Positions 1-7,925 of a stretch of DNA of 7,925 bases are shown here, one piece after another. The translations under genes were made by a program, and so were the position numbers. The DNA is from Clostridia bacterium (GTDB lineage Bacteria; Bacillota_A; Clostridia; Oscillospirales; CAG-272), in the NCBI GenBank assembly GCA_017632155.1, contig JAGBRZ010000124.1, positions 1 to 7,925 of the forward strand, given 5' to 3'. Numbering within the stretch: the stretch's first letter is position 1; every line of letters begins with the position of its first letter. The notes under the pieces were generated by a model. It was not told the origin of the DNA. It did no database searches and was given only the letters and a program-made list of their open reading frames with translations.

Positions 1-1
1 A

Positions 2-157
2 TTGCAGCTCGGCATTGACGAGCGAACCGAGGAAGGTCGGACATGGATCGAGATGGAACTCGTCCGTCAGACCGTGATAGCAATTGAACAAATGAAAAAG
101 AACGGTGACTGTATTGCCGAGGGTGAACTCGGAGATGCGGTCACCGTTTCTGTATGA
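2..157 (+). CDS. C-terminal end of an unrecognised protein (5' end outside window)
   Basis: An open frame enters from the left edge and ends at TGA 155-157, giving 51 residues that begin LQLGIDERTEEGRTW and end AVTVSV. It is rich in Glu, Lys and Arg and includes a likely amphipathic helix around IEMELVRQTVIAIEQMKKNG. I recognise no family. The next gene follows after 15 bases with its own strong ribosome site, so the two are probably co-transcribed. Codon use is similar to the next two genes and less AT-rich than the module after position 1100. It counts as coding because it stays open to the window edge, in the same orientation and with tight spacing to the next gene. Confidence 0.6.
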   Translation: MQLGIDERTEEGRTWIEMELVRQTVIAIEQMKKNGDCIAEGELGDAVTVSV

Positions 158-172
158 AGGGAGGTGCTGAAA

Positions 173-358
173 ATGGATAAGATATTCAAGCAGCTCTATC
201 CCGGCGTGAAAGAAGAATGCCTGGAACGCGCATTTGAAAAGCTGAAAAAGAACGGTTGCCCAGCAGATGAAGATTTAATGGTATGGTTCGGCAAGCTCGT
301 GGCGGCAGAAATCCTTGAAGATGCATTGGGGAACGGTAGGCATGATGAAAACGATTGA
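173..358 (+). CDS. Small unknown protein, 61 aa
   Basis: The protein begins MDKIFKQLYPGVKEE and is acidic and mostly helical, with no signal peptide or membrane segment. I do not recognise the family. ATG 173 is chosen over an in-frame GTG at 164 because the ribosome site GGAGGTG (160-166) lies 6 bases upstream of 173 and contains the GTG. The final codons overlap the start of the following DUF6809-like gene by 14 bases, which suggests translational coupling in one operon. Small acidic proteins of this kind are common in the accessory parts of Clostridia integrative elements. A role in the element is likely, but its nature cannot be read from the sequence. Confidence 0.65.
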   Translation: MDKIFKQLYPGVKEECLERAFEKLKKNGCPADEDLMVWFGKLVAAEILEDALGNGRHDEND

Positions 359-626
359 CGAACTTTGGTACGGCAACGTCTCGCCCTTCGAGCAATGCAC
401 TCGAGGTGACAAGCGGTTGAAGGAACTACTGAAGCTGGTAGCCAGGAATCGCGAGGAGTTGGATGGCACGCTCACGGACAAGCAGAAGGAAACACTCGAA
501 AAGTTCGAGGAATGCATGAATGAAATGCATGGCATCACCGAGCGCGATGCATTCTACTACGGTTTCCGACTTGGAGTGCAGCTGATGGCTGAGGCCTTCC
601 TTCTGCCGATTGGCGAAGACGAGTAA
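345..626 (+). CDS. DUF6809-like small protein, 93 aa
   Basis: The sequence opens MKTIDELWYGNVSPFEQ and ends with ITERDAFYYGFRLGVQLMAEAF. That is the pattern I know for the DUF6809 family of Clostridia: an N-terminal (L)YYGN motif, a charged helical middle and a C-terminal ER-AF-YGFRLG motif. The family has no established function; it is common in mobile elements and prophages of gut Firmicutes. ATG 345 gives the usual family N-terminus. ATG 342 is possible, and a TTG at 315 would only add residues lying inside the preceding gene. The ribosome site is weak (TAGG, 337-340), so translation probably depends on coupling with the overlapping upstream gene. A terminator-like hairpin begins 11 bases after the stop. 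Confidence 0.75.
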   Translation: MKTIDELWYGNVSPFEQCTRGDKRLKELLKLVARNREELDGTLTDKQKETLEKFEECMNEMHGITERDAFYYGFRLGVQLMAEAFLLPIGEDE

Positions 627-637
627 TGGAAGCCCCC

Positions 638-995: not shown

Positions 996-1024
996 GCAAT
1001 AATCAAAGAAAAGGCTTTCGAAAA
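996..1024 (+). repeat. Left copy of the 20-bp direct repeat GCAATAATCAAAGAAAAGGC
   Basis: Bases 996-1015 are identical to 4045-4064. The match continues after a one-base insertion with TTTCGAAA (1016-1023 and 4066-4073). Upstream, TTTGC also matches apart from two extra bases. The left copy lies upstream of the XRE-pseudokinase promoter and the right copy upstream of the LexA-like gene promoter. The two copies bracket the AT-rich module, so they may mark a duplication made when it was inserted, or a shared regulatory site. Confidence 0.75.
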
Positions 1025-1029
1025 TCGCC

Positions 1030-1120
1030 GAGTTGTCATTTCCTTCTTCGATTTCAAATTACCTGATTGTAGTTTAACGACAACTGAAATGACAACTCAC
1101 AATGTCAAATATGACTACAA
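1030..1120. promoter_or_regulatory. Operator-like array upstream of the XRE-pseudokinase promoter
   Basis: GAGTTGTCATTTC (1030-1042) and GAAATGACAACTC (1086-1098) form a perfect 13-bp inverted repeat 43 bases apart. Between and after them, GACAACT occurs at 1080-1086 and 1091-1097. TTGTAGT (1067-1073) is inverted as ACTACAA (1114-1120), which ends just before the -35 box. Such dispersed inverted half-sites next to a promoter are typical of operators for XRE-type regulators. Self-repression by the gene product is the natural inference but is not shown. Confidence 0.5.
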
Positions 1121-1124
1121 CCTA

Positions 1125-1153
1125 TTGACAGGTGGACAAGAACGTGGTATACT
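1125..1153 (+). promoter_or_regulatory. Consensus sigma-A promoter of the XRE-pseudokinase operon
   Basis: TTGACA (1125-1130) and TATACT (1148-1153) are 17 bases apart, with the start of transcription expected near 1160. The promoter lies across the upstream in-frame GTG at 1132, so that codon cannot be the start. It shares the ten bases CCTATTGACA with the promoter of the LexA-like gene (4099-4108). Confidence 0.8.
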
Positions 1154-1179
1154 ATGGTCACGAAAGGATGGTGACGAAA

Positions 1180-2937
1180 ATGTCAAATACAATGAAACAG
1201 CGCATGGAAGAACTTATGAAAAAGAAAAACTTAAGTGCTTCTGAGCTTTTAATGAAAATACATGATATGCTATACCCGGAGCAGCATAGAGAACGATATG
1301 AATTTTGTGAGAAAAATAAAGCTAATTTCTCTAAAATGATTGGCGGTGCTCGTCCGTTTAAGTTTGAATATGTGGTTCCTTTGGAGCGAATTCTCAATAC
1401 AACGATGGATTACATCGTAAACGGCGAAGAATCAAATGTTGGAATTCAACTTAGAAATAAAGGTATTGAATATACTGCTTATTTGAATGATTACGATGAG
1501 TATGTAAAATTAGGTGCTGAAACCGATAGCGAAGGGCGCTTAATTATTGCTAATCATGATGAGTATAACAAAAATCTTCTTAACTACATTATCGAATATC
1601 AATCCGAACAGGGTATTGCATACTTATATGACCATTTTGGATTTAGATATAGTGCAATGCATGGAGCTTTTAATTGCGAACCGCACATATATATTCATAA
1701 GCAAGATGAGCAGCTCATGATTTTGAAACTCTTGGCTTCAAAAGGGGAAACAGTTTTACTGTATAATATTATCAATCCTTATCAACGAATTGAGTACGAT
1801 TGGGAAAGAGATGATAATCTTCTTAAAAGCAAAGATTTCAGGGATCTTCTTCTGACAAGTGGCGATGTTTTAAAAGAGTTTTTGGATGATGCAACAATAG
1901 GCCTAACTGATGCTAATCGCAATCTTGTTTCTTCGAAGTATTCCTTTGATCAATGTATGTTTATCAATCCGATGCTTCAAGATATACTTGCGTTTGCGCT
2001 TGATAATCCACAATATTATGAGACTGCAATCCATGATATTTTGGATTTTGGAATTGCATACAATAAGAGAATGCTTGGATTTGCGGCAGAGAACTTCTCC
2101 TCTTTTGCACAAGAATTGAAGGTGGATGAGAAGGGATATATTGTTGACGGTTGGGCAAAAATCAGTAGCATATTGACATATGATCGTGCTGTAGATCCTG
2201 AAATTAACAATGCGATCAAAGAAAAAATCAAGACTCTTGTGGCGCAAAAGAACGCACTCTTAAACTTGGAGCAGCCGAGTGTTATGGCAGATACTATTAC
2301 AGCAGATGGAAAGTACATTTGGAGACAAGCATCCGAAAATGATGTTGAGTATGAAATGTACAAGCTTTGTGAGAAGCTGGAGATTCATGAGATTCCTAAG
2401 TATTATGAAACACGAGAAGGATTGGATCGTTTAGACTACATATCAGGCAGTGTGTTAAGGCATTGTGGAAATGCAAATTACAATCAAGTTGCTTCTTTGG
2501 TTTCTTGGTTGAAAAAATATCAGGACAAGCTCGGAGATGCTCTCTGTGGCAAAGTGTATGTTCACGGTGCATTGGATAACGATGCGGTATTGTTCGAAAA
2601 TGATGAGATCAAGGGCATTGTTAATTGGCAATATTGCGGAGTCGGCGAGAAGCACGAGGACTTCGTAGATATTCTTATCAATTGGCTTGATATCGGTTCT
2701 TCCATGAGAAAAAATGATGTGATTTATAGCACGATTGTAAAGCTTCTGAATGAATACGGTGCAACAGAAGAAATGCGCAACAACTTACCAAGCCTTATGA
2801 AAGAGGAGCTTGAACGAAGAATACATAGCCTTGATAAGGAAGCATGGAATTACGAGTATTGGTATGAGTATTACCGTCATGCACAGACCTTTCTGGAGCT
2901 GTATGGAGAAAGGATAAAAAAGGAGGCTCGAAATTGA
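1180..2937 (+). CDS. XRE-type DNA-binding domain fused to an APH-like pseudokinase, 585 aa
   Basis: Residues about 5-80 look like an XRE/Cro-type helix-turn-helix (MKQRMEELMKKKNLSASELL through LERILNTTMDYIVNG). Residues about 85-365 are an unrecognised, mostly helical region. Residues about 365-585 resemble aminoglycoside/choline-type phosphotransferases: an N-lobe around W381-R-Q-A with a YISGS hinge, then VHGALDNDAVLF at the catalytic loop and GIVNWQYCGVG at the metal loop, followed by EDFVDI. Against the family patterns HGDxxxxNVLF and IDWE, the catalytic Asp is Ala464, the metal-binding Asn is Ala469 and the second metal Asp is Asn482. It is therefore probably not a kinase and may bind a ligand or partner instead. 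ATG 1180 follows GGATGGTG and lies downstream of the expected transcription start; ATG 1168 and 1192 are alternatives. The stop overlaps the exonuclease start by four bases. I infer a self-regulating sensor-repressor. Confidence 0.7.
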   Translation: MSNTMKQRMEELMKKKNLSASELLMKIHDMLYPEQHRERYEFCEKNKANFSKMIGGARPFKFEYVVPLERILNTTMDYIVNGEESNVGIQLRNKGIEYTAYLNDYDEYVKLGAETDSEGRLIIANHDEYNKNLLNYIIEYQSEQGIAYLYDHFGFRYSAMHGAFNCEPHIYIHKQDEQLMILKLLASKGETVLLYNIINPYQRIEYDWERDDNLLKSKDFRDLLLTSGDVLKEFLDDATIGLTDANRNLVSSKYSFDQCMFINPMLQDILAFALDNPQYYETAIHDILDFGIAYNKRMLGFAAENFSSFAQELKVDEKGYIVDGWAKISSILTYDRAVDPEINNAIKEKIKTLVAQKNALLNLEQPSVMADTITADGKYIWRQASENDVEYEMYKLCEKLEIHEIPKYYETREGLDRLDYISGSVLRHCGNANYNQVASLVSWLKKYQDKLGDALCGKVYVHGALDNDAVLFENDEIKGIVNWQYCGVGEKHEDFVDILINWLDIGSSMRKNDVIYSTIVKLLNEYGATEEMRNNLPSLMKEELERRIHSLDKEAWNYEYWYEYYRHAQTFLELYGERIKKEARN

Positions 2938-3518
2938 ATTATTTATTCTTTGATGTAGAATGTGCTAACAGTTTTGACGGGGTGGGTAAGATATGTGAGT
3001 TCGGTTATGTTTTGACAGATGAGAACTTAAATGTTATCAAACAAGGGATTCATTTGATCAACCCGGATGCGGAATTTGATTGGTATGTCAAACATAAAAT
3101 AATATCTTATGCAATAAAGGAATATGAAAAAGCTCCCCAATATCCACAAATCTATAGAATGCACATTCAAGAACTTGTAGAATTACCGAATACGCTTTAT
3201 GTGGGTCACGGAGTAAGGGATGATATTAAATATCTCAACGATGAAGCCAATCGCTATAATTTGCCAAGATTTGAAAGACAATGTATAGACTCGTCTCAGA
3301 TACATAGGCGTTTTTATAATTTGCCGCAAACTAAAGGGCTAAAAGCCATCGTTAAAGAGCTTGAAATTGGAGATCATAAAAAACTACACAATAGCGAATA
3401 CGATGCGAAAATGACCTTGGAATATGTAAAAAGAATGTGTGAAGAAAGCGGCTTGAGTTTTGAGCAACTAATTAAAAAGCATACAAAAGGTAAGAAAAAA
3501 GTTGCTCGGGTGGTATAG
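2934..3518 (+). CDS. DEDDh-family 3'-5' exonuclease (DnaQ/RNase T-like), 194 aa
   Basis: All motifs of the DEDDh exonuclease fold are present: Exo I FFDVEC with D7 and E9, Exo II GHGVRDDIKYL with D96 or D97, and Exo III LHNSEYDA with H152 and D157. Enzymes of this family use two metal ions to remove nucleotides from 3' ends of DNA or RNA; the substrate here cannot be read. The protein is a single catalytic domain with a basic tail (KKHTKGKKKVARVV) that may contact nucleic acid. Translation starts at TTG 2934, since AGGAGG (2921-2926) lies 7 bases upstream and the next Met codons are too far inside the motifs. TTGA overlaps the upstream stop, so synthesis is probably coupled to the XRE-pseudokinase. 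It is AT-rich like the rest of the module. Confidence 0.85.
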   Translation: MNYLFFDVECANSFDGVGKICEFGYVLTDENLNVIKQGIHLINPDAEFDWYVKHKIISYAIKEYEKAPQYPQIYRMHIQELVELPNTLYVGHGVRDDIKYLNDEANRYNLPRFERQCIDSSQIHRRFYNLPQTKGLKAIVKELEIGDHKKLHNSEYDAKMTLEYVKRMCEESGLSFEQLIKKHTKGKKKVARVV

Positions 3519-3592
3519 GTATAATAGCTATATCAATCGCAAACTTGATTTATCAAATCCATAAAATAAATAAAATTGAAGGAGGTATAGTC

Positions 3593-3772
3593 ATGGGAAA
3601 AGGTGGACGTGGAGTATCCGGATATACTCACACCAAAGAACAATTAGATTATTACGCCAATCAAAACAATCCCAATAACAATGCATATTGGGCAAATCAA
3701 GACAACCATGCAAACCAATGTAATCCAAATAACGATGAGTATTGGCATAGCAGGGAAAAAGATGATGATTGA
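3593..3772 (+). CDS. Small Asn-rich protein with duplicated ANQxNPNNxxYW motif, 59 aa
   Basis: The protein starts MGKGGRGVSGYTHTKEQLD and then has two copies of a motif: ANQNNPNNNAYW and, after a short linker, ANQCNPNNDEYW. It ends acidic (SREKDDD). It has no membrane segment or signal peptide. I recall similar Asn-Pro-rich small proteins with NPNN motifs in Firmicutes but know no function. ATG 3593 is preceded at 6 bases by AAGGAGGT (3579-3586), one of the best ribosome sites here, so the in-frame upstream start at 3545 is rejected. It follows the exonuclease by 74 bases without a terminator, and its stop overlaps or nearly touches the next reading frame, so it probably belongs to the same operon. 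Confidence 0.7.
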   Translation: MGKGGRGVSGYTHTKEQLDYYANQNNPNNNAYWANQDNHANQCNPNNDEYWHSREKDDD

Positions 3773-3786
3773 CAAGAGGGATGATT

Positions 3787-3954
3787 ATGTTTGGAAGGTT
3801 TAGAGCCAATCAAGAGGAAGAACTTCGCTTAGAAAAAGAACGACTGAATAAAATGAGCGAAAAAGAACTTTTGATTGAGATGATATTGGAGTTAAAAAGA
3901 ATCGATCAGAAATGTGATGATATTGCAAGAAAAATTGTTATTTGGAGTAACTGA
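3787..3954 (+). CDS. Small coiled-coil-like protein, 55 aa
   Basis: The protein begins MFGRFRANQEEELRLEKERL and is almost wholly charged helix with heptad-like Leu/Ile spacing (LLIEMILELKRIDQKCDDIARKIVIW), so a coiled coil or helical hairpin is likely. I know no function. ATG 3787 is preferred because AAGAGGG (3774-3780) is 6 bases upstream; ATG 3781 lies directly against that site and is less likely. It is the last gene of the AT-rich module, and a strong intrinsic terminator starts 9 bases after its stop. Being downstream of the NPNN-repeat protein with only 14 bases between, the two small proteins may act together. Confidence 0.6.
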   Translation: MFGRFRANQEEELRLEKERLNKMSEKELLIEMILELKRIDQKCDDIARKIVIWSN

Positions 3955-3962
3955 ATAATTAA

Positions 3963-4004
3963 AGCCGATGAGGGATCGCAAGAAACCTCATCGGCTGTTT
4001 TGTT
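3963..4004 (+). terminator. Strong intrinsic terminator ending the AT-rich module
   Basis: AGCCGATGAGG (3963-3973) pairs perfectly with CCTCATCGGCT (3986-3996) around a 12-base loop and is followed by GTTTTGTT. It isolates the four-gene module from the LexA-like gene, which has its own promoter. Confidence 0.9.
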
Positions 4005-4044
4005 GAACAAAGTAAGTTGCCATTCAAGGTGCAGAATATGGTTT

Positions 4045-4073
4045 GCAATAATCAAAGAAAAGGCGTTTCGAAA
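4045..4073 (+). repeat. Right copy of the 20-bp direct repeat
   Basis: Identical at 4045-4064 to 996-1015, then TTTCGAAA (4066-4073) after one inserted G. It lies between the module terminator and the LexA-like promoter. With the left copy it brackets about 3 kb that holds the four-gene module. Confidence 0.75.
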
Positions 4074-4083
4074 TAACGAAACA

Positions 4084-4153
4084 AAAAGTTCTAAAATCCT
4101 ATTGACAACTCGCACATGGTATGATATAATAATAAAACCAAAAGTTCTAAAAT
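4084..4153 (+). promoter_or_regulatory. LexA-like gene promoter between two identical 14-bp operators
   Basis: TTGACA (4102-4107) and TATAAT (4125-4130) are perfect consensus boxes with a 17-base spacer. AAAAGTTCTAAAAT occurs exactly at 4084-4097, just before the -35 box, and at 4140-4153, just after the expected transcription start. Direct repeats placed on both sides of a repressor gene promoter are most simply its own operators. They do not match the usual Gram-positive SOS box (CGAAC-N4-GTTCG type), so the repressor probably has its own specificity. Confidence 0.75.
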
Positions 4154-4169
4154 GAGTCGAGGTGTCGTT

Positions 4170-4781
4170 ATGAGAGTGATGAGCGAGGAAAAGCTGAACA
4201 AGCTCGCAGAGTTTATCAAGCAGTACGCAAGGGATAACAACGGAGAATCTCCGAGCCTTGCGGATATCATGGATTACATGGGGATGGTCAAGTCCACAGC
4301 CTACCGTCACGTGCTGGAGCTTGAAAAGCGCGGTGTGATCTCTTACACCGGCAAGAAAACTCTGTCATCTCCTCTGCAAAGAAAGATGAATGTGATGTTT
4401 CGCAGGATCCCTATCGTGGGTATGATCGTGTGCGGCACCCCCGATGAACAGGAAGAGCACATCACAGGCTACCTCGCCGTACCCGAAGAGTGGATCGATG
4501 GCGAGTGCTTTCTGCTCGAGGCATACGGTGACTCAATGGTGGATATCGGCATTGACAAGGGCGACCTCGTGCTGGTCAAGAAGACCGAAACCGCCAAAGA
4601 TGGTGATGTCGTGGTAGCTCTCACCGAGGACGGCAACACCCTCAAGCGCCTGTTTTGGGAAAATGGCAAGCCGAGACTTCACGCGGAGAACAAAACCTAC
4701 ACGGGAAGAATGCTTAACTTCTATCCGAGAGAGCTGACGATACAGGGAATCGCCTTGAAGGTGATTAAGGACATTAGATAA
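4170..4781 (+). CDS. LexA-like self-cleaving (peptidase S24) repressor, 203 aa
   Basis: Residues 5-65 form a LexA-type winged helix-turn-helix (KLAEFIKQYARDNNGESPSL, then STAYRHVLELEKRGVI). Residues 80-203 form an S24/LexA-UmuD domain with a cleavage site at Cys88-Gly89 (GMIVCGTP), the nucleophile Ser122 in YGDSM and the general base Lys159 in GNTLKR. The length matches LexA. All residues for RecA-assisted self-cleavage appear present, so DNA damage should inactivate it. ATG 4170 is chosen because GAGGTG (4159-4164) lies 5 bases upstream; ATG 4152 would overlap the downstream operator. Placed before excision and mobilisation genes, it probably represses the element. It could instead be a general LexA homologue, but the mobile context argues against that. 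Codons are richer in GC than in the modules on either side. Confidence 0.9.
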   Translation: MRVMSEEKLNKLAEFIKQYARDNNGESPSLADIMDYMGMVKSTAYRHVLELEKRGVISYTGKKTLSSPLQRKMNVMFRRIPIVGMIVCGTPDEQEEHITGYLAVPEEWIDGECFLLEAYGDSMVDIGIDKGDLVLVKKTETAKDGDVVVALTEDGNTLKRLFWENGKPRLHAENKTYTGRMLNFYPRELTIQGIALKVIKDIR

Positions 4782-4798
4782 TAATTATGGAGGCAATT

Positions 4799-5032
4799 AT
4801 GGGATTCTTTTTTAAGAGCGATTCAGATAAAGAAGGAAGAGAATATTGTGGAAGAGCACAGAATGCTATCGAAGAGATTTTTGATAGCTACAAAAGATAT
4901 TCAGACGAAGATAAATGTGCTGTTAAGGGATTGGTAGAAAAATTAGAAACGCTTGCCAAAGACCTTGAACATTACGACAAAAAATCTCTGATAGACAATT
5001 TCAGAGATAGTATAAAAAGGATTTTTGGGTGA
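4799..5032 (+). CDS. Unknown helical protein, 77 aa
   Basis: The protein begins MGFFFKSDSDKEGREYCGRA and continues as a charged, probably all-helical chain (AIEEIFDSYKRYSDEDKC, then VEKLETLAKDLEHYDKKSL). No membrane segment is evident. I do not recognise it. ATG 4799 is preferred over ATG 4787 because GGAGG (4789-4793) lies 5 bases upstream of 4799 and overlaps the earlier codon. It starts 17 bases after the LexA-like stop and overlaps the membrane protein gene by four bases. It is visibly more AT-rich than the LexA-like gene and the zinc-ribbon gene, as is its partner, which suggests that the pair was acquired together. Confidence 0.65.
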   Translation: MGFFFKSDSDKEGREYCGRAQNAIEEIFDSYKRYSDEDKCAVKGLVEKLETLAKDLEHYDKKSLIDNFRDSIKRIFG

Positions 5033-5469
5033 TAATGAAAAAATATATTCCGGCAATAATTAGAGGAATCATAGCAGGAGCCATTACAATCCTTTTGGGT
5101 GGGGCTGTTGGTTTAGCGTTTCCAAATTTTTACGTTTCGGGCTTGCATTTGATTTGGCAGGTTTGCTTTTGGAGTTTGCTGGTCTTTGTGCCGTTTTCTA
5201 TTTGCAGAATAGGGGTGTTGTTTTATCATAAAGTCAAAAAGCATCCAAAAGATAATCGTAAATTTTGGAATTCGTTAGATTTTGTTTTAACATATATCTT
5301 TAGTGTGATATGGCAAGCATTGATTTTAGATAATTTTGAAACTCATTATGCTTTAGTGTACGGAAGCGTAATTGCATTTGTTTCTGCAATCTTCGGAATT
5401 GTTAGTTGGTATGATTCAAAAAACAATGAGGAGAAAAAGAGCAAGAAGCGTTCTAAACGGAAGAAATAA
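5029..5469 (+). CDS. Unknown membrane protein with four predicted helices, 146 aa
   Basis: Four hydrophobic segments are visible at about residues 6-30 (IPAIIRGIIAGAITILLGG), 38-64 (LIWQVCFWSLLVFVPFSI), 80-102 (FVLTYIFSVIWQALIL) and 105-128 (YALVYGSVIAFVSAIFGIV). A strongly basic tail (KKSKKRSKRKK) should lie in the cytoplasm. I recognise no family; a small accessory or immunity-type membrane protein is possible. GTG 5029 is taken as the start because AAAAGGA lies 7 bases upstream and GTGA overlaps the preceding stop; ATG 5035 is the alternative. The two-gene pair is probably translated together. No terminator separates it from the zinc-ribbon gene. Confidence 0.65.
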   Translation: MIMKKYIPAIIRGIIAGAITILLGGAVGLAFPNFYVSGLHLIWQVCFWSLLVFVPFSICRIGVLFYHKVKKHPKDNRKFWNSLDFVLTYIFSVIWQALILDNFETHYALVYGSVIAFVSAIFGIVSWYDSKNNEEKKSKKRSKRKK

Positions 5470-5484
5470 GAGTGAGGTGTATCC

Positions 5485-5727
5485 ATGGAGAAGACAGTCA
5501 AACGAATCCCCATCGCTCGCTGTCCCGTTCCCGATTGCGGAAGAACGTTGATGTACAGCGGAGATCCTAAAGATAAGCATACCGTCATGCTGAGTATAGC
5601 CGGTGATGGATACCAGGGCAAGACCATGATGTGTCCCAAGTGCAAGACGGTGTTGAAGGTTATTGAAAAGCCGAAAGTCGCGGCAGGGTATATCTCTCTG
5701 CCAATCATCAGCTGTATCGAATGCTGA
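5485..5727 (+). CDS. Small zinc-ribbon protein, 80 aa
   Basis: Cys13 and Cys18 (CPVPDC) and Cys50 and Cys53 (CPKC) make a four-cysteine zinc ribbon. A further CIEC sits at the extreme C-terminus (77 and 80). The region between holds a short beta-rich stretch (HTVMLSIAGDGYQGK). I cannot assign a family or function; small zinc ribbons in mobile elements usually bind nucleic acid or protein. ATG 5485 follows GAGGTG (5474-5479) by 5 bases. Codon use is less AT-rich than in the membrane protein before it and resembles the LexA-like gene, so it seems to belong to the element backbone. A nic-like sequence and a strong terminator follow. Confidence 0.75.
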   Translation: MEKTVKRIPIARCPVPDCGRTLMYSGDPKDKHTVMLSIAGDGYQGKTMMCPKCKTVLKVIEKPKVAAGYISLPIISCIEC

Positions 5728-5749
5728 TAAAATACAATTGAAAGTGAAG

Positions 5750-5775
5750 CTATCCTCCCGGCTGTGAATTCGGGA
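5750..5775 (+). other. Candidate oriT core resembling the IncP/RP4 nic region
   Basis: CTATCCTCCCGGCTG (5750-5764) matches the RP4 nic region CTATCCTGCCCGGCTG as I remember it, except for one missing G at the position next to the nick. TCCCG (5756-5760) and CGGGA (5771-5775) form a small hairpin just after it. The site lies about 950 bases upstream of a MobP-type relaxase, within the mobilisation region. P-type relaxases usually cut within a YATCCTG-like sequence. The missing G and the absence of a clear inverted repeat on the 5' side keep this a candidate. Confidence 0.4.
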
Positions 5776-5785
5776 ATCAAGGGTC

Positions 5786-5840
5786 AAGCATCAGAGCAAA
5801 TGAGCGGAGCAGGTCTCCGCCTTGTTCTGGTGCTTTTTTT
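5786..5840 (+). terminator. Very strong intrinsic terminator after the zinc-ribbon gene
   Basis: Bases 5786-5799 pair with 5822-5835 over 14 positions with two G-T wobbles. Above a small internal loop, GCGGAG (5804-5809) pairs with CTCCGC (5815-5820), and seven T follow in 5834-5840. This should end transcription from the LexA-like/zinc-ribbon side before the excisionase-like gene. Its proximity to the nic-like site means part of it could also belong to a structured oriT. Confidence 0.85.
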
Positions 5841-5876
5841 CGTTACATAAAAACTATGAAAGGATGGTGTTTCGAA

Positions 5877-6092
5877 ATGTTAGAATCCATTATTAAGAAC
5901 TACGATGAGCTCCCATTGTTCCTAAATGCCAAAAATCTTTCCAAGGTCTTGGGCTTGTCCGAATCCAGCGTTTACGAGCTGATGCACGAGAAGGATTTTC
6001 CTTCGCTTTGTATCGGGAGCAGGCTGGTCGTTCCCAAAGAGCATTTCAAAAAATGGGTGGACGAGCAAATTGAGAAGAAAAATCGAAAATGA
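5877..6092 (+). CDS. Excisionase-like (HTH_17/MerR-type) DNA-binding protein, 71 aa
   Basis: Residues 16-62 follow the pattern of excisionase and AlpA-type winged helices: FLNAKNLSKVLGLSESSVYE is the helix-turn-helix, then FPSLCIGSRLVVPKEHF is the wing, with KKWVDEQIEKKN as the last helix. Such proteins bend DNA at attachment sites for excision or regulate mobility genes. ATG 5877 is preferred: AAAGGATGGTG (5859-5869) lies just upstream, while the earlier in-frame ATG 5856 has no ribosome site. The same 11 bases precede the XRE-pseudokinase start. No integrase is visible in this window. The position ahead of the ribbon-helix-helix and relaxase genes also allows a role at oriT. A hairpin spans its stop codon. 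Confidence 0.8.
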   Translation: MLESIIKNYDELPLFLNAKNLSKVLGLSESSVYELMHEKDFPSLCIGSRLVVPKEHFKKWVDEQIEKKNRK

Positions 6093-6106
6093 TGAGTTTT
6101 CGATTT
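6080..6106. repeat. Perfect 10-bp inverted repeat across the excisionase-like stop codon
   Basis: AAATCGAAAA (6080-6089) pairs with TTTTCGATTT (6097-6106) around a 7-base loop holding the TGA. No T-run follows, so it is not a typical terminator. CGATTTCGA at 6101-6109 recurs at 6191-6199, which suggests a protein-binding motif used repeatedly in this leader. Confidence 0.6.
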
Positions 6107-6240
6107 CGAAGCAGGATAAAGCCGCTTAGCTCGCGGCACACAACAGCGCCCGGCAACGCCGGTCGCAGGCGATTTAGGGGGTGTTTGGGGCGATTTCGAG
6201 AAATTTCAAAATCGTTCCGGTCTCCTTCGCGCTTAGCTCT
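6107..6240. promoter_or_regulatory. GC-rich, hairpin-dense leader before the mobilisation genes
   Basis: No gene is visible. GCCGC (6121-6125)/GCGGC (6133-6137) and CCGGC/GCCGG around AAC (6150-6162) are short hairpins. CGATTT (6191-6196) pairs with AAATCG (6209-6214), enclosing the palindrome GAAATTTC. CGCTTAGCTC is an exact direct repeat at 6123-6132 and 6230-6239. This density of symmetry upstream of a ribbon-helix-helix protein and relaxase suggests an oriT or an operator for the accessory protein. I see no clear promoter. Confidence 0.45.
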
Positions 6241-6279
6241 TTCAAAATCGCGCGTTACGCAGTTTTGAAGTGCTTTTTT
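6241..6279 (+). terminator. Terminator-like hairpin in the mobilisation leader
   Basis: TTCAAAA (6241-6247) pairs with TTTTGAA (6263-6269), continuing inward with a T-G wobble, one C-A mismatch and GCG/CGC around a 5-base loop. Three to four bases later comes a run of six T (6274-6279). It may terminate or attenuate transcription 30 bases before the ribbon-helix-helix gene, or be an oriT hairpin. Confidence 0.45.
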
Positions 6280-6308
6280 GAATTTGAAACACAGAAAGGA
6301 AAAAGAAA

Positions 6309-6722
6309 ATGGCTGAAAAATCTTCAGAAAAGATGCCGACAAAGGGAATAAGAATGCCCGAAGAGCAATGGGAAATGTGCCAGGAAAAGGCAAAAGAGCT
6401 TGGCTATCACAATCCAAGTGAATTCGTTCGTGACGCAATTGATTTTTATGTTGAATGGACCAATCGAGAATCCTCTGAAAAGTTTTTAACTCCCGCGCTT
6501 GAATCGGTCGTGAGAGGAATTGTTAAAGACAGTGAGGACAGAACTGCTCGGTTACTTTTCAAAATGGTGGTTGATATAAATCTCATTACTCGAATCATTT
6601 GTTCAGATTTAAATTACTCTGAGGCCGACCTCAGAAGGCTCAGACAAGAGTCTGTTCGCATCGTAAGTGATACCAATGGCACGATCCATCTCGGTGAGAA
6701 TACGGCAGCATGGCACGACTGA
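6309..6722 (+). CDS. Ribbon-helix-helix relaxosome accessory protein, 137 aa
   Basis: Residues about 10-50 form a ribbon-helix-helix: the strand KGIRMPEEQW, then helices MCQEKAKELGYHNPSEFVRD and IDFYVEWTNR. The remainder is helical and may mediate oligomerisation or contact with the relaxase. Such proteins (MobC-like in role) bind oriT, help load the relaxase and often repress the mobilisation operon. ATG 6309 follows AAAGGA (6295-6300) by 8 bases. The gene overlaps the relaxase start by 13 bases, which is strong evidence for a shared function. The hairpin-dense leader immediately upstream is its likely binding region. I infer the relaxosome role from the fold and neighbour, not from a specific family match. 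Confidence 0.8.
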   Translation: MAEKSSEKMPTKGIRMPEEQWEMCQEKAKELGYHNPSEFVRDAIDFYVEWTNRESSEKFLTPALESVVRGIVKDSEDRTARLLFKMVVDINLITRIICSDLNYSEADLRRLRQESVRIVSDTNGTIHLGENTAAWHD

Positions 6723-7925
6723 TATTCAAAGCTCCGTACTATCAGCCTCGTTCAAAAGTTCCATCGGGGAGCACTCGCGGTGGTTACGCTAATTATATTG
6801 CCACTCGCGAGGGGGTGGAGATACTACCTCGCGGTGGTATGGTGGGATATATCGGAGAGCGTCGTGGCTCAAACGGTCTCTTTTCTGACGATGGTGACCC
6901 CGTTATTCTCTCGCAGATCACGAAGGAAATGGATGAGCATGAGGGGAATATCTGGGGCTTGGTCTTCTCTTTGACGCGAGAAGATGCAGAAAGACTTGGC
7001 TACAATCAGGCAAGTCAATGGGTATCTCTTCTGCGTTCTCATCGTAGCGATATCGCTCGCGAGATGCATATTGCTCCGAAAAATCTTCGATGGTATGCGG
7101 CGTATCATAACGCGGAAGGGCATCCTCACGTGCATGTGCTTGTCTGGTCGAGTGATCCGCAAGAGCCATATCTCTCGACCGTTGGTATTCATAACATCAA
7201 ACAGACCTTCGCTGCCGATATCTTTCGCCAGGATAACATCTCTAATTACAAGAAGCAGACCCAGGCTCGTGACGAATTGAAAGCAGAATTCCGCATCCGA
7301 ATTGCTGAGATCAACAAGGAGATCCAAAGCGGTGCTTTCTCTGTTTCGGCAGATCTCGTCTACAAGCTCGAAGAGCTTTCGGTCGCACTTGATAATCATA
7401 AAGGCAAAAAAGTTTACGGTTATCTCTCAAAGAAAAACAAAGATCTGGTGGATGAGATCGTGAAAATGGTTGCCCAGGACGAGAAGATCACCGAACTCTA
7501 TGACCTATGGTACAAGCTTCAATGTGAAAATTATCGTAACTATACCGATCAAATGCCAAAAAAGATACCGCTGGAAACAAATAAAGAATTCAAGTCTCTG
7601 CGGAACTTTGTGGTCAAGTCTGCCTCTGAAATGCTCACGGATATTCCCGAACCGAGTGATTTTGATGACGATTATATTTGGTATCGGAAGTACGGTGACA
7701 ACGAAACTGTTCTGCGCTTCAAGGCAGAGGACGGTAATGCTCACGCGCAGTATCTCTATGCCCGTAGGCTTCTTGAAGATGACGATCCCGAAGAGGCTGA
7801 GCACTGGCTGAAGCAATCTGCATCTAAGGGAAATCATCTTGCTATGTATATGCTTTATAAATGCTATCGCGACGGCAAGATCGAGGATCGTGAGGGTGAG
7901 AAAATGAGATATCTGCTCATGGCGG
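6710..7925 (+). CDS. MobP3-type relaxase with C-terminal Sel1-like repeats, N-terminal 405 residues (runs off window)
   Basis: The frame is open from ATG 6710 to the right edge without a break. The N-terminus MARLIFKAPYYQPRSK, then GGYANYIATREGVE and GYIGERRGSNGLFSD, is the pattern of MobP3 relaxases of Firmicutes elements. Tyr26 or Tyr29 is the likely catalytic tyrosine. The metal-binding histidines are H138, H140 and H142 in EGHPHVHVLVW. Relaxases cut one strand at oriT, stay bound through tyrosine and lead the strand into the recipient. From about residue 345 the sequence turns into Sel1-like helical repeats (AHAQYLYARRLLEDDDPEEA, then AEHWLKQSASKGNHLAMYML), probably for protein contacts. 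The start overlaps the ribbon-helix-helix gene by 13 bases with only a weak ribosome site, so translation is probably coupled. The rest of the protein lies beyond the window. Confidence 0.9.
   Translation, partial: MARLIFKAPYYQPRSKVPSGSTRGGYANYIATREGVEILPRGGMVGYIGERRGSNGLFSDDGDPVILSQITKEMDEHEGNIWGLVFSLTREDAERLGYNQASQWVSLLRSHRSDIAREMHIAPKNLRWYAAYHNAEGHPHVHVLVWSSDPQEPYLSTVGIHNIKQTFAADIFRQDNISNYKKQTQARDELKAEFRIRIAEINKEIQSGAFSVSADLVYKLEELSVALDNHKGKKVYGYLSKKNKDLVDEIVKMVAQDEKITELYDLWYKLQCENYRNYTDQMPKKIPLETNKEFKSLRNFVVKSASEMLTDIPEPSDFDDDYIWYRKYGDNETVLRFKAEDGNAHAQYLYARRLLEDDDPEEAEHWLKQSASKGNHLAMYMLYKCYRDGKIEDREGEKMRYLLMA

What the first reader, a model, noticed from the sequence alone, without database searches (positions are those of the whole stretch)
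1125..4004. Self-contained four-gene module: XRE-pseudokinase, DEDDh exonuclease, NPNN-repeat protein, coiled-coil protein
The sequence shows one promoter, two couplings or close spacings, one strong terminator, and AT-rich composition unlike the neighbours. A DNA-binding sensor-like regulator tied to an intact nuclease and two tiny proteins is the layout of many defence or competition modules, yet I know of no described system with this combination. The defence reading is inference: the nuclease might equally serve element maintenance.
Basis: partly seen in the sequence, partly recalled or inferred. Interest (0 to 1): 0.75.

Follow-up and report, generated by a model that had tools for sequence, protein, structure and literature searches.

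The report
Candidate mobile phage-defence operon with exonuclease
A four-gene unit on a mobile DNA element, probably from an uncultured Clostridia bacterium, looks like a so far unlisted defence operon (a DNA-binding pseudokinase plus an intact exonuclease and two tiny proteins), because a second copy lies inside a defence island and a related element carries a known abortive-infection gene in the same slot; its function is untested.

Summary
The four genes, promoter, coupling and terminator are real, and the unit travels: window 1004-3922 recurs at 97.8% identity with different flanks in a Clostridia MAG, inside a defence island between a complete Wadjet (JetABCD) and SoFic. In the window it fills a cargo slot of a MobP3 mobilizable element; the slot holds another HTH protein plus g4 in one sister element and AbiD in another. 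The tail is not private: in one genome g3-g4 follow an AAA_15 ATPase and an HNH-like gene. g1 = XRE-type HTH + helical middle + APH-like pseudokinase (catalytic Asp lost in 5 of 6 aligned sequences); g2 = DEDDh exonuclease with all catalytic residues (model pLDDT 94). PADLOC models match only the nuclease domain. Best reading: a new candidate anti-phage/anti-MGE operon in which the HTH-pseudokinase senses and represses and the exonuclease acts. Location supports this; no experiment does. Main gap: g1-g2 adjacency is known from two near-identical copies only; in surveys of 295 genomes the distant relatives of g2 and of g1 stood apart.

The parts
996..1025 (+). left boundary repeat of the cargo unit (30 bp, imperfect copy at 4045-4074)
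   Evidence: the repeat finder; homology to L001 starts at 1004 and one homology block to L017 stops at 1013; core motif exact at 996
1030..1098 (.). operator-like inverted repeat, arms GAGTTGTCATTTC 1030-1042 and 1086-1098
   Evidence: 13-nt arms, 100% complementary; arms differ from L001 at 0/13 and 2/13 positions, the spacer 1043-1085 at 13/43. Operator role inferred
1125..1153 (+). sigma-70-type promoter, 11 of 12 matches, extended -10
1180..2937 (+). g1, 585 aa: XRE-type HTH (about residues 1-84) + helical, perhaps ankyrin-like middle (about 90-365) + APH-like pseudokinase (about 370-585)
2934..3518 (+). g2: DEDDh exonuclease, 194 aa, five catalytic residues present (D7, E9, D97, H152, D157)
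3593..3772 (+). g3: 59-aa NPNN-repeat small protein
   Evidence: relatives in 8 of 295 genomes and 5 IMG/VR contigs, 2 of the 5 partial; phage copies near TerL
3787..3954 (+). g4: 55-aa charged small protein shared with other cargo operons
   Evidence: L017 84%, L139 98%, L149 56%, L151 49%
3963..3996 (+). intrinsic terminator
   Evidence: -24.2 kcal/mol, z -6.45
4045..4074 (+). right boundary repeat
   Evidence: homology to G718 (L139) ends at 4067
1..627 (+). element backbone, left of the slot (three small genes)
   Evidence: 93% identical to L017 6779-7405
4170..4781 (+). element backbone: LexA/S24-type repressor right of the slot
   Evidence: NCBIfam lexA 118.3 bits; block 3759-4775 90% identical to L017
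4787..5469 (+). second variable cargo site (77-aa and 144-aa proteins); sister L017 has a pP_pnuc_1 protein here
5485..7925 (+). element backbone: 80-aa protein, HTH_17, RHH, MobP3 relaxase (open at window end)
   Evidence: MobP3 NF041499 278.7 bits; 92-93% identical to L017

Best explanation
The unit is a candidate anti-phage/anti-MGE defence operon carried as cargo by a MobP3 mobilizable element. Shown: promoter and terminator signals, overlap of g1 and g2, all catalytic residues in g2, lost catalytic residues in the kinase-like part of g1, mobility as a block, a second copy inside a defence island, and AbiD in the same slot of a related element. Inferred: g1 binds the inverted repeat upstream of its own promoter and keeps the operon low; its middle and pseudokinase parts bind an invader-derived protein, nucleic acid or nucleotide; this releases transcription and/or directly switches on g2, which degrades 3' ends of invading (or host) DNA. 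g3 and g4 are accessory small proteins (restraint, delivery or stabilising partners) shared with other nuclease operons.
For: Second copy L001 8010-10865 lies on contig C92 about 3.6 kb after JetD (JetA 1e-143, JetB 8.4e-63, JetC 0, JetD 1.8e-120) and directly before SoFic (3.5e-103) and PDC-S66 (6.9e-17, first part only), with MzaB/C/D/E, a cytosine methylase and two PDC-S41 proteins on the same 52-kb contig. Related element L152 (relaxase 47%, LexA-type 33% identical), same order of backbone genes: the slot holds AbiD (2.1e-80; Pfam Abi_2 2.6e-42). Sister element L017 has pP_pnuc_1 (4.6e-37) in the second slot. L139: AAA_15 ATPase (AriA 7.8e-24, PtuA 4.8e-15) + HNH-like + g3 + g4, tail DNA 92% identical to the window; L149: AAA_15 ATPase + HNH-like + g4. 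Low dN/dS for g1 and g2; catalytic residues of g2 invariant in 18 of 18.
Against: No experiment. g1-g2 adjacency is known from two near-identical copies only; the g2 relatives of 10 further genomes of 295 (32-38% identity) had no g1-type neighbour, and shorter HTH-repeat relatives of g1 travel without g2. g3 also occurs in phages, odd for a defence component. [quoted passage not shown] Defence-island residence is guilt by association, seen for one locus; the chance rate of such neighbours was not measured.
Confidence: 0.6

Rival explanations
1. Element-maintenance or transfer-control unit: g1 is a cargo-borne repressor that regulates the mobile element or excludes related elements, and g2 processes DNA ends during transfer, replication or repair of the element.
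For: Lies next to the element's LexA-type repressor and MobP3 relaxase; HTH-repeat relatives sit next to a relaxase gene (L019) or an integrase-like gene (L018, by eye); the closest folds of g2 include replication and repair exonucleases: Pol III epsilon, PolC-type, DinG, ExoI, ExoX.
Against: The L001 copy kept g1, g2 and g3 open while it lacks lexA, relaxase and nearly all of the integrase, so the unit persists without the element's transfer genes; it then sits among defence systems.
Confidence: 0.17
2. Toxin-antitoxin-like (addiction or abortive-infection) unit: g2 (or the pseudokinase protein) is toxic to the host, g3 and/or g4 or g1 neutralise it, and infection frees the toxin.
For: Tiny proteins beside larger ones in many loci: HTH-repeat proteins followed by small acidic/aromatic proteins in L002, L018, L019, L020, L021, L022; a protein that looks like a nucleotidyltransferase followed by a g3-like gene in L072 and L147.
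Against: No toxin family was matched by g2; g3-like proteins also stand without a neighbouring enzyme (L075, L076, L078); g4 is truncated into a hybrid in L001, so an intact g4 is not strictly required there.
Confidence: 0.15
3. A loose cargo assembly: g1, g2 and the g3-g4 tail are passengers brought together by exchange of cargo pieces and do not work together.
For: Tail genes are shared with unrelated heads (L139, L149, L017, L151); g1 relatives are mosaics (P0003: N part 64-71%, C part 91-95% identical; P0002: last part 57%); outside the one cassette g1 and g2 relatives stood apart.
Against: g1 and g2 overlap by 4 bp under one promoter; the block has stayed together in two contexts and both genes show low dN/dS.
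Confidence: 0.08

Closest known systems
diDNase islands of Actinomycetes and Clostridia (Mortensen et al. 2025, PMC11706625; abstract and passages read)
   Same: DEDD-superfamily nuclease of about 200 aa in Gram-positive genomic islands, by that paper mostly beside an HTH gene or a HipA (kinase) + HIRAN pair, and near defence systems in 41.9% of cases
   Different: diDNases are DEDDy NrnC homologues; g2 is DEDDh (His152) and models closest to DnaQ/DinG/ERI1-type exonucleases; g1 is one large HTH-middle-pseudokinase protein
CBASS accessory 3'-5' exonuclease Cap18 with repressor CapW (PMC9122588; passages read)
   Same: defence operon with its own transcriptional repressor and a 3'-5' exonuclease; Cap18 structure 7t2s is among the Foldseek matches of g2 (TMq 0.60, E 1.1e-5)
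   Different: no cGAS-like enzyme, HORMA or TRIP13 gene here; the repressor type differs (XRE-type with pseudokinase, not WYL)
AAA_15 ATPase + HNH-like operons (L139, L149), Septu- or PARIS-like in layout
   Same: they carry the same kind of small-protein tail (g3-g4 in L139, g4 in L149) as the window unit
   Different: head genes unrelated; membership of these operons in Septu or PARIS was not established
AbiD (Abi_2) in related element L152
   Same: occupies the same slot between left backbone genes and the LexA-type gene
   Different: single protein without similarity to g1-g4
HipBA-type kinase toxin-antitoxins (recalled)
   Same: XRE DNA-binding part combined with a kinase-like fold
   Different: the kinase-like part is APH-like and lacks catalytic residues; single fused chain; an exonuclease follows

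Membership tests
DEDDh exonuclease (RNase_T/DnaQ-like) | five catalytic residues D, E, D, H(x4)D in three Exo motifs | tested here: met
   D7, E9, D97, H152, D157 invariant in 18 of 18 aligned sequences, window included
DEDDh exonuclease (RNase_T/DnaQ-like) | DnaQ-like exonuclease fold | tested here: met
DEDDh exonuclease (RNase_T/DnaQ-like) | 3'-5' exonuclease activity and substrate (DNA or RNA) | not testable with these tools
   needs biochemistry
diDNase (NrnC-type, DEDDy) | tyrosine as fifth catalytic residue in Exo III | tested here: not met
   His152 in g2, invariant in relatives; definition read in PMC11706625
APH-type kinase | APH sequence signature | tested here: inconclusive
   window 18.4 and P0004 14.1 bits, below the cut-off 23.2; homologue P0005 (31% identical) 41.9 bits, above it
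APH-type kinase | catalytic Asp and Asn of HxDxxxxN and metal-binding Asp (definition recalled) | tested here: not met
   HGALDNDA and IVNWQ in the window; the catalytic Asp is Ala in the window and P0001-P0004 (5 of 6), present only in P0005
XRE/lambda-repressor-like regulator | N-terminal helical DNA-binding domain | tested here: met
ankyrin-repeat protein | ankyrin repeats in the middle part | tested here: inconclusive
   Ank_2 only weakly in relatives (E 0.01 and 0.13); the model gives only weak helical-repeat matches
described defence systems (PADLOC-DB 2.0, 2023) | system-specific component models | tested here: not met
   g1, g3, g4 no match up to E 1; g2 matches DEDDh (4.9e-13) and PDC-S48 over the nuclease domain (4.6e-8)
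defence-island gene | repeated close linkage to known defence systems at independent loci | tested here: inconclusive
   one locus inside an island; slot and tail equivalence at further loci; no count over many independent copies
Septu | PtuA ATPase and PtuB HNH pair (recalled) | tested here: not met
   g1-g4 match neither; ATPase + HNH-like genes occur in L139/L149, which share only the tail
MobP3 mobilizable element (the carrier) | MobP3 relaxase | tested here: met
   NF041499 278.7 bits, cut-off 150
MobP3 mobilizable element (the carrier) | integrase and ends | tested here: inconclusive
   window ends inside the relaxase gene; sister L017 has two tyrosine integrases after it

The most novel reading that the evidence does not exclude
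The cargo is built like an exchangeable tool: interchangeable nuclease heads (HTH-pseudokinase + DEDDh exonuclease; AAA_15 ATPase + HNH; HTH-repeat protein) are plugged onto a common small-protein tail (g3-g4) and swapped between mobile elements with the help of a 30-bp boundary repeat, and g3 is the common restraint (immunity protein) of these heads. Phages that carry an orphan g3 near their terminase gene would then use it as a ready-made antidote against this whole class of defences.
Probability: 0.1. Interest if true: 0.87.

Novelty: new variant of a known kind. Interest (0 to 1): 0.62.

Why it matters
If the defence reading is right, this adds a candidate system in which a DNA-binding pseudokinase governs a TREX/DnaQ-like exonuclease, a combination found neither in the defence models nor in the paper searches made here, in uncultured Clostridia; one close g1 cluster alone stands for 173 sequences. 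The slot gives a practical hunting rule: what lies between the left backbone genes and the LexA-type gene of these MobP3 elements, or before a g4-type gene, is a defence candidate. It also raises a directly testable question: what tiny shared proteins do in such operons, and why phages carry one of them.

Tried and rejected
Tried without result: megablast of the window against 72,556 plasmid records and tblastn of g1 against plasmids and phages, of g2 against plasmids, of g3 against plasmids and phages: no match; g2 against phages gave 8 Staphylococcus phage records at 25.8%. IMG/VR scans with g1, g2, two HTH-repeat relatives and g4 found no relative; the g1 alignment found one (L002); the g2 alignment found 7 remote exonucleases, not studied. 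Rfam at gathering scores: none. PDB by sequence: none for g2; for g1 11 chains at E 0.015-0.99, most of them APH-type kinases. A second protein search with the g1 alignment gave the same 5 proteins. AF2 of g1 is poor outside the HTH and parts of the middle (mean pLDDT 65), so no fold is claimed for the middle or the kinase-like part; full-length Foldseek matches (none at E 0.001 or better) say nothing. Papers: searches held no paper; one held one HEPN review (not opened); 79 one plasmid paper (not opened); one held 15 (10 listed, PMC11706625 opened); 116 held 54 (10 listed, PMC5398294 outline and abstract seen); 133 held 4 (PMC9122588 passages read).

Considered and rejected: g1 as an active kinase (catalytic residues lost); g2 as diDNase (DEDDh); g3 as a private component; attC-like integron cassettes (I saw no attC features in the boundary repeat; not formally tested).

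Against the cassette idea: of the homology breaks seen, three fall in or at the end of the boundary repeats (1004, 1013, 4067), but others do not (3564 with L139, 3759 with L017, 3922 with L001).

Not done: P0002-P0005 and the 60-74% identical g2 proteins could not be placed on contigs with the tools at hand. The motif enrichment (13 hits in 566 kb, up to 2 mismatches, against a mean of 0.33 in 3 mononucleotide shuffles) is biased, as most loci were chosen by similarity to the window or its genes; the fairer count is: 7 exact matches in the 2.7-Mb genome G001, all on contig C92 and one strand, 0 for the reversed control; 1 in G718, 2 in G673, 0 in G754 and G732.
Full report
WHAT IS THERE. The window is a piece of a mobilizable element: small backbone genes (1-627), a LexA/S24-type repressor (4170-4781), an 80-aa protein, an HTH_17 protein, an RHH protein and a MobP3 relaxase (NF041499, 278.7 bits) that runs off the end. 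Between the left backbone and lexA lies the reported unit: promoter 1125-1153, g1 1180-2937, g2 2934-3518, g3 3593-3772, g4 3787-3954 and a strong terminator 3963-3996 (-24.2 kcal/mol, z -6.45). g1 and g2 overlap by 4 bp; all four have plausible ribosome sites. GC is 0.35-0.37 against 0.46-0.52 in the backbone stretches measured, but the second cargo site 4787-5469 is equally AT-rich. Upstream of the promoter is a 13-bp inverted repeat (1030-1042/1086-1098) whose arms are kept in the second copy (0/13 and 2/13 differences) although the spacer differs at 13 of 43 positions: a likely operator (inferred).

THE UNIT MOVES. Window 1004-3922 recurs at 97.8% identity in L001, contig C92 of an uncultured Clostridia MAG (genome G001), with other flanks. 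C92 also holds a full sister element (L017) with the same backbone at about 90-93%, where the slot contains a different HTH-repeat protein (422-435 aa by start) followed directly by a g4 gene, and the second slot a pP_pnuc_1 protein. The L001 copy looks like a stripped derivative: an 85-bp stretch like L017's left end, the unit, and the last 103 bp of an integrase gene fused to g4. Thus g1-g3 stayed open while lexA, relaxase and most of the integrase are absent; g4 became a hybrid. A decayed 190-bp g1 remnant (96%) sits in G719 (L141). Three homology breaks fall in or at the end of the repeats at 996-1025 and 4045-4074 (1004, 1013, 4067), while others (3564, 3759, 3922) do not. In G001 the core motif occurs 7 times, all on C92 and one strand, reversed control 0; in four other genomes 0, 0, 1 and 2 times. 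Long direct repeats (88-654 and 32955-33522 of C92, 88%) suggest tandem integrations.

THE COMPANY IT KEEPS. C92 is a defence island: MzaB, C, D, E with a cytosine methylase, PDC-S41 twice, complete Wadjet JetA-B-C-D, then g1-g4, then SoFic and a partial match to PDC-S66. In a related element of G754 (L152; relaxase 47%, LexA-type 33% identical), with the same order of backbone genes, the slot between the left genes and the LexA-type gene holds AbiD (2.1e-80; Abi_2 2.6e-42). In G719 (L140) a PDC-S51 protein (6.7e-87) lies on the other side of the left backbone genes. Not every slot looked like defence: the large proteins of L146 and L154 near that place matched nothing, and L145 showed no defence gene by eye (only one of its proteins was scanned). 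The tail also follows other heads: G718 (L139) AAA_15 ATPase + HNH-like + g3 + g4, with window 3564-4067 92% identical; G732 (L149) AAA_15 ATPase (506 of 606 aligned positions identical to L139's) + HNH-like (84 of 100) + g4; G673 (L151) 379-aa protein without a match, a 73-aa protein that looks like an HTH (by eye), g4. The HNH assignments are weak: in L139 19.5 bits, under the Pfam cut-off; the L017 relative passes HNH_4; no PADLOC match.

COUNTS, MISSES INCLUDED. g1 alignment: 9 of 295 genomes of the order and 5 of 391 of the class (overlapping samples) have some match, full length only in G001. g2: 11 of 295 at E 1e-12; the other 10 genomes (32-38% identity) showed no g1-type or HTH-repeat neighbour in the 13-kb (one 10-kb) stretches searched. 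g3: 8 of 295. lexA at E 1e-30: 22 of 295. Window DNA: 41 of 127 genomes of the family have some match, the whole unit only G001. HTH-repeat relatives of g1 (no kinase-like part) are followed by small proteins in L002, L017, L018, L019, L020, L021, L022 and L051 (in L020-L022 after a zinc-ribbon protein); in L070 no such partner was seen, and L071 was not resolved. Hence the link between an HTH-repeat protein and a tiny downstream protein is recurrent, while the link between g1 and g2 rests on the overlap and on one cassette seen twice.

g3 IN PHAGES AND ELSEWHERE. In IMG/VR contigs L058 and L059 the g3-type gene lies between the terminase large subunit (phrog_9, 1.4e-187 and 4e-187) and a methyltransferase/ParB-like gene (phrog_498); L057 has the terminase nearby; L060 and L061 are partial matches in other surroundings. 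Of the 8 genomic hits besides the unit itself: L074 has the phage-type methyltransferase nearby; L072 follows a protein that looks like a nucleotidyltransferase (by eye, no Pfam match), as does L147, found later by DNA; L075, L076 and L078 precede a 57-63 aa acidic protein of the kind that also follows HTH-repeat operons; L073 and L077 showed no such neighbour. So g3 is a general MGE/phage small protein, and any role in the unit must explain this.

HOW IT PROBABLY WORKS. g1 represses its own promoter through the inverted repeat (inferred), senses an invader with its middle/pseudokinase parts (inferred), and releases or activates g2, which removes DNA from 3' ends (inferred from the complete site and the fold). 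g3/g4 restrain or assist (inferred). Confidence in a defence role 0.6. Rivals: element control (0.17), toxin-antitoxin-like unit (0.15), passengers without joint function (0.08).

COMPARED WITH WHAT IS KNOWN. PADLOC models match only the nuclease domain of g2. The nearest printed parallel is the diDNase work (PMC11706625; abstract and passages read): DEDD nucleases in Clostridia/Actinomycete islands beside an HTH gene or a HipA kinase plus HIRAN pair; but those are DEDDy and g2 is DEDDh. CBASS of E. coli upec-117 (PMC9122588; passages read) combines a repressor with a 3'-5' exonuclease, Cap18, whose inactivation did not affect protection there, a warning against taking g2 for granted as effector. 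Searches showed no paper with the combination. Variable defence loci as such are known (PMC5398294, outline and abstract seen). Verdict: a real, mobile unit; a good new defence candidate of a known general kind with a new combination of parts.

Noticed in passing
L001 / L155 / L156 / L017 (contig G001:C92, 52 kb): Dense defence island in an uncultured Clostridia MAG: Mza genes, two PDC-S41, MobP3 element, complete Wadjet, g1-g4, SoFic, PDC-S66-like protein, with long direct repeats that suggest tandem integration.
   Followed up: partly
window 996-1025 and 4045-4074; G001:C92: Short boundary repeat whose core occurs 7 times in the whole genome of G001, all on one contig and one strand; some but not all cargo borders fall on it; role unknown.
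   Followed up: partly
L058 6001-6150, L059 6001-6168: Close relatives (76-88%) of g3 encoded by phage contigs between terminase large subunit and a methyltransferase/ParB-like gene.
   Followed up: partly
L002, L018, L019, L020, L021, L022, L051: Family of HTH-repeat proteins (361-423 aa; L051 a partial copy at a contig end), each followed by a tiny acidic/aromatic protein of one of two kinds, in L020-L022 with a zinc-ribbon membrane-like protein between them.
   Followed up: partly
L139 2831-5442, L149 6131-8582: AAA_15 ATPase + HNH-like nuclease + small tail protein operons, Septu- or PARIS-like in layout.
   Followed up: partly
window 4787-5469; L017 10204-11043: Second variable cargo site after lexA: two small ORFs in the window (one membrane-like by eye), a pP_pnuc_1 nuclease in the sister element.
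   Followed up: no
L072 5429-6064, L147 5192-5827: 211-aa protein that looks like a nucleotidyltransferase by eye (no Pfam match in L072), followed by a g3-type gene beside a tyrosine-integrase-like gene.
   Followed up: no
P0002, P0003 against window g1: Mosaic divergence: the HTH/middle part and the C-terminal part of g1 change independently, as if recognition parts were exchanged.
   Followed up: partly
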